The position numbers were made by a program, and so were the translations under genes. Below, piece by piece: positions 4,419-46,203 of a stretch of 64,000 bases of DNA; position 1 is the first letter of the stretch, and every line of letters starts with the position of its first letter. Source of the DNA: an uncultured Dehalococcoidia bacterium (GTDB taxonomy: Bacteria > Chloroflexota > Dehalococcoidia > Lucifugimonadales > GCA-2712585); the NCBI GenBank assembly GCA_958295715.1, contig OY282371.1, forward strand, positions 1-64,000, in the 5' to 3' direction. Below the pieces are notes generated by a model. The model was not told the origin of the DNA. It did not search any database and saw nothing but the letters and a program-made list of their open reading frames with translations.

Positions 4419-4883
4419 ATGGAATGTCCGCGTTGCCGGGGCAGCAAGTTGGTTTTGCAGGACCACCTGGGCATTGAGGTCGACGCCTGTCCCCAGTGCC
4501 GCGGCATGTGGCTCGACTACCACGAGATGGACCAGTTGGAGGACACGGTGATGGACCAGGACCATCTCAAGGGCAGCATGATGTACGCGGAGCGGCCCAG
4601 CGACATCCGGTGCCCCAAGTGCGCCCAACCCATGACCACCTTCAACTATCGCGCCTACGACCTGCCCATCGACTTCTGCGACGGCGGCCACGGCTTTTGG
4701 CTGGACGCCGGGGAGGAGAAGCGGGTGCTGGAGCTCATGGAGAAGCGGCTCCGCGACCTGAAGCGCACCGCCTCGGCTGAGGGCGAATGGGTCGGCTTCC
4801 TCAAGGGTATAAGCGGCAGGAAACCGCCGCGCCCCGGCAGCTTTATGAACAGGGTCAAGGGGTGGTTTACCGGCAGGCGTTAG
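4419..4883 (+). CDS. Two-zinc-ribbon (TFIIB-type) protein
   Basis: A 154-residue protein with two treble/ribbon-type modules: CPRC and CPQC near residues 3-6 and 28-31, each followed by a GxWLD-type sequence, and CPKC near 66-69 followed by FCDGGHGFWLDAGE near 88-101. This matches the zf-TFIIB family of small bacterial proteins of unknown function. The start is chosen because AGGAGG lies 6 nt before ATG 4419; the longer open frame upstream consists of repeat sequence. The C-terminus is basic (ending in WFTGRR). Its last 19 codons are duplicated downstream at about 5020-5076. It is convergent with the uracil-DNA glycosylase gene. Confidence 0.85.
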   Translation: MECPRCRGSKLVLQDHLGIEVDACPQCRGMWLDYHEMDQLEDTVMDQDHLKGSMMYAERPSDIRCPKCAQPMTTFNYRAYDLPIDFCDGGHGFWLDAGEEKRVLELMEKRLRDLKRTASAEGEWVGFLKGISGRKPPRPGSFMNRVKGWFTGRR

Positions 4884-5018
4884 CCCTCCGATAGAAGCCC
4901 GCGCACCGTCTCAAACACGCCGTCGAACATCTCCCTGGTTAGGCGTCCCGTCTGGGCGCTCTGCTGGCTGGGGTGGTAGGACGCCACCAAGGTTTTCCCG
5001 TCGTCCAACCCGTAAACT
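4880..5018 (-). pseudogene. 3' fragment of uracil-DNA glycosylase gene (duplicate)
   Basis: Read on the minus strand, this segment encodes the C-terminal end of the family-5 glycosylase again, including a second HPSQQ motif, and ends in TAA at 4882-4880. Compared with the intact gene it has a few conservative replacements (Asn-Thr to Ser-Ala after HPSQQ, Ile to Leu near the end) among mostly silent changes. It has no N-terminal part, so it is a remnant and not a gene. Confidence 0.85.
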
Positions 5019-5019
5019 G

Positions 5020-5076
5020 CCGCGCCCCGGGAGCTTTATGAACAGGGTGAAGGGGTGGTTTACCGGCAGGCGTTAG
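5020..5076 (+). pseudogene. 3' fragment of zinc-ribbon gene (duplicate)
   Basis: The plus strand repeats the last 18 or 19 codons of the zinc-ribbon gene with only silent substitutions (same FMNRVKGWFTGRR end and TAG at 5074-5076). It lacks any upstream coding part. Confidence 0.85.
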
Positions 5077-5792
5077 CCCTCCGACAGGATCCCGCGAACC
5101 GTCTCAAACACGCCGTCGAACATCTCCCTGGTCAGGCGTCCCGTCTGGGTGTTCTGCTGGCTGGGATGGTAGGACGCCACCAAGGTTTTCCCGTCGTCCA
5201 AACTGTAAACCGCCCCGTGCCCGAACCGGGGTCTCGGCGATGGCAGGGGGAATCCCCGGTCTCTGTGCACGCCCAGATAGGCGTCAAAGGCTATCTTGCC
5301 CAGGGCCACCACCACGCTGACCCGGTCCAGGAGGTCCAACTCCCGCATGAGATACGGCTTGCAGTTGGCCAACTCCTCGCGCAGGGGCTTGTTCAGGGGC
5401 GGGGCGCACCGCAGGGCGGCGGTGATGAAGGCGTCACGGAGGGCCTGGCCGTCGTCCCGGCGGGTGGAGGTGGGCAGGGCGGCGAACCCGAACCGGTGGA
5501 GGGCGCCGTAGAGCCAGTCGCCGCTGCGGTCTCCCGTAAACATGCGCCCCGTGCGGTTGCCGCCGTGAGCCGCCGGAGCTAAGCCCAGGATAAGTACCCG
5601 GGCGCCGGGGTCTCCAAAGGCCGGCAGGGGCCTTCCCCAGTAGTCCCAGCCGGCGTACATTGGCCGCTTCTTCAGCGCGACGCCCTCCCGGTGGGCCACC
5701 AGCCGGGGGCACTTGGCGCAGGCGATGACGGTCTGCTGGAGCCTCTCCAATTTGGTCACCGGTTCCTCAGCTTGCGGGTGGAAACGCGGCAT
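5073..5792 (-). CDS. Family 5 uracil-DNA glycosylase (UDGb type)
   Basis: A 239-residue Fe-S uracil-DNA glycosylase that excises uracil and other deaminated bases from DNA. Four cysteines (25, 28, 129, 144) have the spacing of the Fe4S4 ligands of family 4/5 enzymes. Motif A is GLAPAAHGGNRTGR at 70-83; Ala-Pro-Ala-Ala with no acidic residue in this position is characteristic of family 5, and motif B is HPSQQNT at 209-215. It is the last gene of a minus-strand run: transporter, dehydrogenase, glycosylase, with 8 nt separating it from the dehydrogenase. Its 3' end is involved in the 193-bp tandem duplication but the gene itself is intact. Confidence 0.9.
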   Translation of the reverse strand: MPRFHPQAEEPVTKLERLQQTVIACAKCPRLVAHREGVALKKRPMYAGWDYWGRPLPAFGDPGARVLILGLAPAAHGGNRTGRMFTGDRSGDWLYGALHRFGFAALPTSTRRDDGQALRDAFITAALRCAPPLNKPLREELANCKPYLMRELDLLDRVSVVVALGKIAFDAYLGVHRDRGFPLPSPRPRFGHGAVYSLDDGKTLVASYHPSQQNTQTGRLTREMFDGVFETVRGILSEG

Positions 5793-7743: not shown

Positions 7744-8152
7744 GCCGCGCGCATGGTCACTCGCTGCCGCTCCTCCCTTCCGTCATTCCCGTGAAAACGG
7801 GAATCCATCCCCTCTGCCCCGCGATTCGCTGGGCAACGGCGCGGCGGTGCGCGCCCCTCTTCCTTCCGCCATTCCCGCCCCTCTCCTTTCCGTCATTCCC
7901 GTGAAAACGGGAATCCAGGAACCCTACACAGCAGAACCAACGCCCCAAACCCCGGAGCCACCCGTAGGCTCTTATCTAACGCGGGTGTGGACGTGATGGG
8001 TCCGGCTCTTACCGGCGTGGGGCGCTGTGCCCTCTGTCGCAGTGGAGGTAAGAAAGATGGATTCCCGCCTGCGCGGGAATGACGGAGGGAGGGAGGCGGG
8101 AATGACGGGAGCCTGTAAGGGGGAATGACGGAGGGCGGGGGGAAGAGGACGG

Positions 8153-8389
8153 CTACAGGAACTTGATGGCGGCAATCATGGCGCCGACCAGCAGAGGAGC
8201 GCCTATCGCCAACATGCGGTTCATGGTTGTGAAGCTACCCTGCAACCTGGCGATGTCTTCCTTGAAAACGCCTTGCATCTTGGCCATGTTTTCCTCAAAG
8301 CTACCCTGCAACCTGGCTATGTCTTCCTTGGTGGCGAGGTGAGGTATCACCGCTTCGATTCTGCTGACACGTTCCTCAAGGCTGACCAT
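8153..8389 (-). CDS. Small tail-anchored coiled-coil protein, three 11-residue repeats
   Basis: A 78-residue protein with a head ending in PHLATKED, then three hendecads of the pattern AxxQGxFxExx, and a hydrophobic C-terminal helix of about 20 residues (from MNRMLAIGAP) ending in KFL. It is a short paralog of the 155-residue protein at 45511-45978: head and tail are nearly identical and the length difference is exactly 7 x 11. Hendecads favour a right-handed or nearly straight coiled coil, and the C-terminal helix suggests tail anchoring in the membrane. The ATKED-plus-TM plan faintly recalls DUF1640-type proteins, but I cannot confirm it. Ribosome site AAGGAG precedes ATG 8389. Function unknown. 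Confidence 0.75.
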   Translation of the reverse strand: MVSLEERVSRIEAVIPHLATKEDIARLQGSFEENMAKMQGVFKEDIARLQGSFTTMNRMLAIGAPLLVGAMIAAIKFL

Positions 8390-8421
8390 GCTAACTCCTT
8401 GTTACCAATCCGTGTAACGTC

Positions 8422-8451
8422 ATATTACCAGAAAGCCGTGAGGCGATTCAA
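8422..8451 (-). promoter_or_regulatory. Promoter of short coiled-coil gene
   Basis: Minus strand TTGAAT (8451-8446), 18-nt spacer, TAATAT (8427-8422) with an upstream TGG. The same promoter, with the same spacing, precedes the 155-residue paralog at 46011-46040, so it is conserved with the gene. Confidence 0.65.
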
Positions 8452-8540
8452 CGGCGGTAAGGAAGATGGATTCCCGCCTGCGCGGGAATGACGGAGGGGG
8501 GGAGGCGGGAATGACGAGACATGTAGGCCGCGTGGGGCGG

Positions 8541-45321: not shown

Positions 45322-45510
45322 AATCGTTGCGTCAAACCCTAGCGCTCTTGGGCTTGGGGGGCAAGGGAGGGGGAGGACGCCCGCGTGGGATGCGGCTACG
45401 GGTCGGCCCGGAGTTCGGGGCGTTGGCTTTGGGATGTAGGGTTGCCGGGTTCCCGCCTGCGCGAGAATGACGAAAGGGGGGCGCGAGAATGACGGGTCAG
45501 GAGAGGGCGG

Positions 45511-45978
45511 CTATAGGAACTTGATGGCGGCTATCATGGCGCCGACCAGCAGAGGAGCGCCTATGGCCAACATGCGGTTCATGGTTGCGAAGCTGCCCTT
45601 TAACCCAGCGATTTCTTCCATGAATTTGCCTTGCGATCTGGCGTTGTCTTCCTTGAATTCACCCCGCGATCTGGCGTTGTCTTCCTTGAAGTCGCCTCGC
45701 ATCTTGGCCATGTCTTCCTTGAATTCGCCCCGCAATCTGGCGATGTCTTCCTTGAATTCGCCCCGCATCTTGGCCATGTTTTCCTCGAAGCTGCCCTGTA
45801 TCTTGGCCATGTTTTCCTCAAAGCTGCCCTGCATCTTGGCCATGTTTTCCTCAAGGCTGCCCCGCATCTGGGCCATGTTTTCCTCAAGGCTGCCCTGCAA
45901 CCTCGCCATGTCTTCCTTGGTGGCCAGGTGAGGTATTACCGCTTCCAGTCTGCCGACCCGTTCCTCAAGGGTGACCAT
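45511..45978 (-). CDS. Tail-anchored coiled-coil protein, ten 11-residue repeats
   Basis: A 155-residue paralog of the 78-residue protein at 8153-8389. After a 24-residue head ending LATKED come ten consecutive hendecads of the form MARLQGSLEEN / MAKMRGEFKED, then the same hydrophobic tail (MNRMLAIGAP to KFL). The unit is 33 bp in the DNA, and codons vary between units, so this is not a simple recent slippage product. Seven repeats more than the short form. The hendecad phase predicts a long parallel coiled coil standing off a membrane anchor. GAGGAG precedes ATG 45978 and the promoter is conserved with the paralog. Function unknown. Confidence 0.75.
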   Translation of the reverse strand: MVTLEERVGRLEAVIPHLATKEDMARLQGSLEENMAQMRGSLEENMAKMQGSFEENMAKIQGSFEENMAKMRGEFKEDIARLRGEFKEDMAKMRGDFKEDNARSRGEFKEDNARSQGKFMEEIAGLKGSFATMNRMLAIGAPLLVGAMIAAIKFL

Positions 45979-46010
45979 GCTAACTCCTCGCTGCCAGTCC
46001 GTGTAACGTC

Positions 46011-46040
46011 ATATTACCAGAAAGCCGCGGGGCGATTCAA
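46011..46040 (-). promoter_or_regulatory. Promoter of long coiled-coil gene
   Basis: Minus strand TTGAAT (46040-46035), 18-nt spacer, TAATAT (46016-46011), identical in hexamers and spacing to the promoter of the short paralog at 8422-8451. Confidence 0.65.
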
Positions 46041-46203
46041 CGGCGGGGGCTGGCTAGAGGGGAAAGATGGATTCCCGCCTGCGCGGGAATGACGGAACGG
46101 AGAGGAGTGGTGGGAGTGACGGGATGCGTTCTCCCCCCGGCGCGTGGAAGGGGGGCTGAGGTGGTAGAATCTATGCAGACCATCGGAAAGGCGGAGGGGC
46201 CGC

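What the first reader, a model, noticed from the sequence alone, without database searches (positions are those of the whole stretch)
8061..8489. Cassette-like coiled-coil gene with an 11-residue repeat, short form
The 78-aa gene at 8153-8389 is bounded by palindromes 8061-8080 and 8470-8489 in the same orientation, and its long paralog (45511-45978) is bounded the same way. Head, tail, promoter hexamers and spacer are conserved, while the middle differs by exactly 7 x 11 residues (3 versus 10 hendecads). A gene family spreading with repeat borders and varying its coiled-coil length in fixed units would be a new kind of mobile or phase-variable membrane protein. Length might tune distance from membrane.
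Basis: partly seen in the sequence, partly recalled or inferred. Interest (0 to 1): 0.75.

Follow-up and report, generated by a model that had tools for sequence, protein, structure and literature searches.

The report
Six coiled-coil genes with adjustable stalks
A bacterium, probably of the Chloroflexota class Dehalococcoidia, carries six near-identical small membrane-anchored coiled-coil genes near its replication gene dnaA; they differ almost only in how many 11-residue stalk units they have (1 to 10), which looks like a protein ruler lengthened by ordinary DNA tandem repeats rather than a new kind of mobile element.

Summary
The gene (minus strand, 8153-8389) has six intact copies in its genome, all within about 56 kb of dnaA if the contig is circular. 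Lengths are 60, 78, 78, 89, 122 and 155 aa; stalks hold 1, 3, 3, 4, 7 and 10 hendecads (33-bp in-frame units). Head, C-terminal membrane anchor and an ~85-bp promoter block are conserved, and divergence is mainly synonymous (pN 0.03, pS 0.24), so the copies look functional. The bordering palindromes are genome-wide CGTC-type REPs (357 exact copies, dRS3-like), not borders made for this gene. Yet all six copies have REPs within 200 bp on both sides, pointing the gene's way; 1 of 257 ordinary ORFs has REPs on both sides, in mixed direction. The protein has a head, beta-layer neck (LATKED), hendecad stalk and membrane anchor, like DUF1640/MCUR1 proteins, but scores below Pfam's cut-off. In a genome from another family of the order, seven relatives also differ by 11-residue steps within each neck class, in tandem clusters with almost no REPs, so the length steps do not depend on the repeats. 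Mobility and phase variation are untested.

The parts
8153..8389 (-). Short copy (c8), 78 aa: head MVSLEERVSRIEAVIPH, neck LATKED, 3 hendecads, C-terminal membrane anchor MNRMLAIGAPLLVGAMIAAIKFL
   Evidence: protein identical to copy G000:C1:2305572-2305808, 4 synonymous codon differences
8390..8465 (-). Conserved promoter block upstream of c8 (TTGAAT-18-TAATAT; inverted repeat GTAAY-ATGAC-GTTAC over the -10)
   Evidence: the 26-bp core is found 6 times in the genome, always before this gene
8061..8080 (-). CGTC-type REP downstream of c8, same direction as gene
8470..8489 (-). CGTC-type REP upstream of c8, same direction as gene
7785..7914 (+). Two further REPs (7785-7804, 7895-7914) of the same repeat island, opposite direction
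45511..45978 (-). Long copy (c45), 155 aa, 10 hendecads; AlphaFold helices 4-17 and 21-154
45608..45919 (-). 33-bp tandem repeat array encoding the hendecad stalk of c45
   Evidence: period 33, 84-87% matches
45979..46052 (-). Conserved promoter block upstream of c45
45449..45468 (-). Degenerate REP (2 mismatches) downstream of c45
46071..46090 (-). REP upstream of c45

Best explanation
This is a lineage-specific family of six small membrane-anchored coiled-coil proteins. SHOWN by sequence: each copy has its own promoter block, a short helical head, a neck motif (LATKED, LVTKED in one copy) of the type that forms a beta-layer in solved coiled coils, a stalk of 1 to 10 hendecads with hydrophobic residues at positions 1, 4 and 8 of most units, and a near-invariant C-terminal hydrophobic segment. 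The unit is 33 bp of tandem DNA repeat, so gain or loss of a unit keeps both the reading frame and the coil register; head and anchor are under purifying selection. INFERRED: the protein is an oligomeric rod (probably a trimer) that holds its head at a set distance from the membrane, about 1 to 16 nm at 0.15 nm per residue. Units are added and lost by slippage or unequal recombination. The copies spread locally, around dnaA, as segments bounded by same-direction REPs, either by recombination between REPs (RecA-type, or by a REP-targeting recombinase such as the IS110 element in this genome) or by plain segmental duplication.
For: Six copies, 5 lengths, every stalk 9 modulo 11. 33-bp arrays. 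pN 0.033 against pS 0.237 over head and anchor; no amino-acid change in the last 32 residues among five copies despite 4-10 synonymous codon changes in all pairs but one (c8-c2305: 0). Promoter block 6 of 6 and nowhere else. Model of c45: helix 4-17, break at LAT, helix 21-154, mean pLDDT 82. Neck motif fits the published consensus [aliphatic]-A-T-K-[polar]-[DE] seen in DUF1640 (PMC4786415), and the best solved matches of the family profile are 5apz (a beta-layer construct) and 6h9l. Independent recurrence in G199: stalks 44, 55, 77; 40, 73; 50, 94, i.e. steps of 11, 22, 33 and 44 within each neck class. Local clustering: span 99.7 kb of 2.35 Mb, chance about 8e-7 if placed independently and the contig is circular. 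REPs on both sides, the nearest in the gene's direction, 6 of 6; only 1 of 257 ordinary ORFs has REPs on both sides, and there in mixed direction.
Against: Oligomeric state, topology and function are untested; the model is a single chain built from 5 sequences. Two units of c45 start NARS with polar core positions, so the rod may not be regular. Circularity of the contig, and hence one cluster rather than two end clusters, rests on dnaA at base 1255 and on the clustering itself; GC skew is weak and no sequence overlaps the join. The six copies share ancestry, so their REP arrangement may stem from few events, and the comparison ORFs were all 300 nt or longer. REP-mediated spread is inferred from arrangement only; one copy has its upstream REP at 191 bp.
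Confidence: 0.62

Rival explanations
1. A true mobile cassette: the gene and its flanking same-direction REPs form a unit that is excised as a circle by REP x REP recombination and reinserted at other REPs, as suggested for dRS3 repeats and the Nf1 integrase in Neisseria. The stalk variation is a by-product.
For: All six copies sit in REP islands between same-direction REPs, against 1 of 257 ORFs with REPs on both sides. Outer flanks differ. The genome has four IS110 recombinase copies, all inserted at the same point inside this REP. The repeat matches the Nf1-targeted dRS3 subtype ATTCCCRCCTRCGCGGRAAK (PMC3898611).
Against: All copies lie in one ~100-kb region although REPs are genome-wide. 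No phage, plasmid or viral copy. In the known cases IS110 recombines its own donor site with a target, not REP with REP. Local duplication followed by rearrangement would look similar.
Confidence: 0.2
2. Ordinary local gene duplication: the copies arose by segmental duplication around the origin, and the REPs are incidental because they fill the long intergenic regions of this genome.
For: REPs occur in islands throughout the sampled genome (about 0.34 per kb). Clustering near dnaA. The relatives at 1.37, 2.05 and 1.30 Mb exist or multiplied without REPs on both sides.
Against: Homology between copies is limited to about 85 bp upstream, the gene and about 15 bp downstream plus REPs. REP direction relative to the gene is the same in 12 of 12 nearest REPs, whereas upstream REPs of ordinary ORFs face the other way in 14 of 15.
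Confidence: 0.35
3. A phase-variable surface or membrane protein whose stalk length switches frequently within a population.
For: 33-bp tandem units, some adjacent units only about 2 nt apart; five lengths in one genome.
Against: No alleles compared. Units within a copy are mostly diverged, with 84-87% matches overall, which suggests slow turnover. No signal sequence is evident at the N terminus.
Confidence: 0.08

Closest known systems
DUF1640 / MCUR1-CCDC90 family (Pfam PF07798, CCDC90-like), membrane-anchored coiled-coil proteins of prokaryotes and organelles
   Same: Short head, [aliphatic]-A-T-K-[polar]-[DE] beta-layer neck at the start of the stalk, coiled-coil stalk, C-terminal membrane anchor; PF07798 is the best or near-best sub-threshold Pfam match of several relatives
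   Different: No member tested reaches the Pfam cut-off (21.4 bits for c45, best relative 32.3, cut-off 33.5); stalk is a tandem hendecad array of variable number; the head is a short sequence with no Pfam match
Beta-layer coiled coils such as Thermosinus Tcar0761 (PDB 5apz), and 6h9l
   Same: ATK[DE]D neck element leading into a coiled coil; profile E 0.0011 and 0.011
   Different: Tcar0761 repeats the neck motif as nonads; here the neck occurs once and the repeat is a hendecad
CGTC-tagged REPs, family 1 (Neisseria dRS3)
   Same: ATTCCC-N8-GGGAAT core, CGTC tag, CCA tail, hundreds of copies, no RAYT transposase in this genome
   Different: Chloroflexi are named for GTAG but not for CGTC repeats in the passages of PMC3733652 read here; here a small gene family is consistently bracketed by them
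dRS3-flanked genes of Neisseria (pilC1, pilS loci) and Nf1 integration at dRS3
   Same: Genes embedded in arrays of nearly the same repeat, with recombination between repeats proposed as cause (PMC3898611)
   Different: Here one gene family in several copies, with variable hendecad number, and no demonstrated recombination

Membership tests
DUF1640 / MCUR1-CCDC90 (PF07798) | Score above the curated Pfam cut-off (33.5 bits) | tested here: not met
   c45 21.4 bits; c8 no match; best relative 32.3 bits
DUF1640 / MCUR1-CCDC90 (PF07798) | Beta-layer neck motif [aliphatic]-A-T-K-[polar]-[DE] at the start of the stalk | tested here: met
   LATKED in five copies, LVTKED in one; consensus from PMC4786415
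DUF1640 / MCUR1-CCDC90 (PF07798) | Coiled-coil stalk followed by a C-terminal membrane anchor | tested here: met
   Sequence of all six copies; helix 21-154 in the model. Membrane insertion itself not tested
DUF1640 / MCUR1-CCDC90 (PF07798) | Trimeric assembly | not testable with these tools
   No multimer prediction or experiment available
CGTC-tagged REP (dRS3-like) repeats | Palindrome ATTCCC-N8-GGGAAT, CGTC tag and CCA tail, many copies outside genes | tested here: met
   definition from PMC3733652
Transposon or MITE | Terminal inverted repeats and target duplication at the module ends, with a transposase | tested here: not met
   Inspection of the aligned flanks shows no terminal inverted repeat beyond the REPs; no RAYT; target duplications not tested systematically
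Phase-variable gene | Different allele lengths within one population or species | not testable with these tools
   One genome of the species; the same-genus genomes lack the subfamily

The most novel reading that the evidence does not exclude
REP repeats in this genome act as recombination sites that carry a small gene from island to island (possibly helped by the REP-targeting IS110 recombinase), so that the genome runs an integron-like dispersal of membrane rods whose length is set by the number of hendecad units.
Probability: 0.15. Interest if true: 0.7.

Novelty: new variant of a known kind. Interest (0 to 1): 0.45.

Why it matters
It offers a natural length series of one membrane-anchored rod (1, 3, 4, 7 and 10 units) within a single cell, with constant ends, which makes the question whether stalk length matters directly testable. 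The same stepwise variation is seen in another family of the order (G199), so hendecad number seems to be a repeatedly used dial in this poorly studied group. The consistent REP bracketing also gives a testable case of REPs helping to spread a gene.

Tried and rejected
A first search used the wrong strand by mistake and was repeated. Phage, plasmid and viral collections gave no relative. RAYT transposase as driver: absent. Synteny with the same-genus genome G002 to find empty sites or test circularity: flanking genes are scattered (1.71 Mb and 1.02 Mb) and could not be used. The idea that the palindromes are specific borders was dropped after counting 357 exact copies. The opposite idea, that they are wholly incidental, was weakened by the both-sides and direction test. 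NCBIfam and PHROGs gave mostly weak coiled-coil matches of no clear function. A proper gene call was not possible; a crude ORF filter was used.

Full report
WHAT IS THERE. The gene lies on the minus strand at 8153-8389 and encodes 78 aa; its paralog at 45511-45978 encodes 155 aa. A search of the same genome found six intact copies: window 8153-8389 (78 aa, 3 units), window 45511-45978 (155 aa, 10 units), and on contig C1 2295814-2295996 (60 aa, 1 unit, with a 4-residue insertion in the head), 2305572-2305808 (78 aa, 3 units, same protein as the first), 2318403-2318672 on the plus strand (89 aa, 4 units) and 2342109-2342477 (122 aa, 7 units). Counting residues from the end of TKED to the TMNRM start of the anchor gives 31, 108, 9, 31, 42 and 75, all equal to 9 modulo 11. 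A 19-residue fragment resembling the anchor lies at 2342824-2342886.

CONSERVED AND VARIABLE PARTS. Outside the stalk the copies are nearly identical as proteins. Over head and anchor the mean pairwise pS is 0.237 and pN 0.033; in the last 32 residues, five copies differ by 4-10 synonymous codons (0 in the pair c8-c2305) and by no amino acid. This pattern indicates selection on the protein. About 85 bp upstream are conserved, with a TTGAAT/TAATAT promoter-like pair and an inverted repeat over the -10; a 26-bp core of this block occurs six times in the genome, always in front of this gene. Downstream, clear conservation ends about 15 bp after the stop codon. The stalk is a 33-bp tandem repeat.

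PROTEIN. AlphaFold on the long copy gives helix 4-17, a break at LAT, and one helix 21-154, mean pLDDT 82. The neck LATKED fits the beta-layer consensus [aliphatic]-A-T-K-[polar]-[DE], reported at the start of the stalk of DUF1640 membrane proteins (PMC4786415); a profile of the family finds 5apz and 6h9l weakly in the PDB (E 0.0011 and 0.011). The hydrophobic residues fall at positions 1, 4 and 8 of the unit (spacing 3-4-4), the hendecad pattern. Pfam CCDC90-like (PF07798) is matched below its cut-off by the long copy (21.4 of 33.5 bits) and by relatives (up to 32.3). I therefore describe the architecture as DUF1640-like without claiming membership.

RELATIVES. A profile search of 250 genomes of the order found matches in 50. 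Same-genus genome G002 has one distant member and G001 none, so the six-copy subfamily is lineage-specific in what is held. In the own genome there are more distant relatives: three in tandem near 1.373 Mb, two near 2.052 Mb and one near 1.305 Mb. In genome G199, from another family of the order, seven paralogs in three clusters have stalks of 44, 55, 77; 40, 73; and 50, 94 residues between neck and anchor, that is, steps of 11, 22, 33 or 44 within each neck class. Other relatives vary by 7 or 4 as well, for instance in G011. So hendecad steps recur but are not the only way stalk length changes in the wider family.

THE PALINDROMES. ATTCCCGCCTGCGCGGGAAT has 357 exact matches in the genome, against none for the reversed control; the looser form ATTCCCGC-N4-GCGGGAAT has 530 places, against 16 in G002 and none in G001. 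With its CGTC tag and CCA tail it fits the CGTC-tagged REPs of PMC3733652, whose Neisseria members are dRS3, and it matches the dRS3 subtype targeted by phage Nf1 as printed in PMC3898611. It is therefore not a private border of this gene. Still, the arrangement around the six copies is unusual. The nearest REP on each side points the same way as the gene in 12 of 12 cases, 77-94 bp upstream of the start codon in five copies and 191 in one, and 36-83 bp downstream. In 19 sampled stretches (380 kb), 15 of 257 ORFs have a REP within 200 bp upstream (14 of 15 in the opposite direction), 18 downstream (all in the same direction) and 1 on both sides. The downstream direction is thus the genome's rule, while the upstream direction and the two-sided bracketing are special. 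The six copies are related by descent, so these are not six independent events, and the comparison ORFs are longer than most of the copies.

POSITION. An ORF recognisable as dnaA is at 1255-2634 of the window, which starts at base 1 of the contig. If C1 is circular, all six copies lie between -55.5 and +43.8 kb of dnaA, a span of 99.7 kb of 2.35 Mb. Circularity was not shown directly: the contig ends do not overlap and GC skew is weak.

HOW IT PROBABLY WORKS. The simplest reading is a set of membrane-anchored rods with constant ends and a stalk whose length is set by unit number, gained and lost by slippage or unequal recombination at 33-bp repeats. Spread within the region most likely involved recombination between REPs or plain segmental duplication; the REP direction favours a role for REPs but does not prove movement. 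A possible enzyme exists: four IS110-family elements in this genome are all inserted at the same point inside the REP, as IS621 does with REPs in E. coli (title of Choi et al. 2003, cited in PMC11208160). That IS110 moves this gene is conjecture.

VERDICT. Observation confirmed and extended; interpretation partly supported. The protein architecture, the REPs, in-frame tandem repeat variation and REP-targeting IS110 elements are each known kinds. The combination, a same-cell length series of hendecad rods bracketed by REPs around dnaA, is a new variant.

Noticed in passing
G000:C1 near 539465, 1474778, 2289273 and 1351543 (L128-L131): Four IS110-family elements, about 96-99.8% identical over about 1.2 kb, all inserted at the same point inside a CGTC-type REP (left CCGTCATT, right CCCGCG-N-AGGCGGGAATCCA); one is about 6 kb from a copy of the coiled-coil gene.
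   Followed up: partly
G199 (L106, L107, L108): Seven paralogs of the wider family in three tandem clusters with near-perfect RLEGKIDAMNE hendecad arrays of different number.
   Followed up: yes
L032 (G000:C1:1372500-1375000): Three tandem, more distant relatives in the own genome with short to medium stalks; REPs only after the cluster.
   Followed up: partly
G000:C1:2342824-2342886 (L031): Fragment resembling the anchor of the family in an ORF that appears to read through a tRNA-like sequence.
   Followed up: no
window 4821-5214: A 193-bp direct duplication (93% match) between the ends of two convergent genes.
   Followed up: no
sampled genome, L086-L104: REPs tend to have their CGTC tag facing the neighbouring gene: downstream REPs 18 of 18 in gene direction, upstream REPs 14 of 15 opposite.
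   Followed up: partly
L116 (G016:C1:605500-607800): ORFs with many repeated ATKDD/ATKSD beta-layer motifs followed by a hydrophobic segment, reminiscent of Tcar0761.
   Followed up: no
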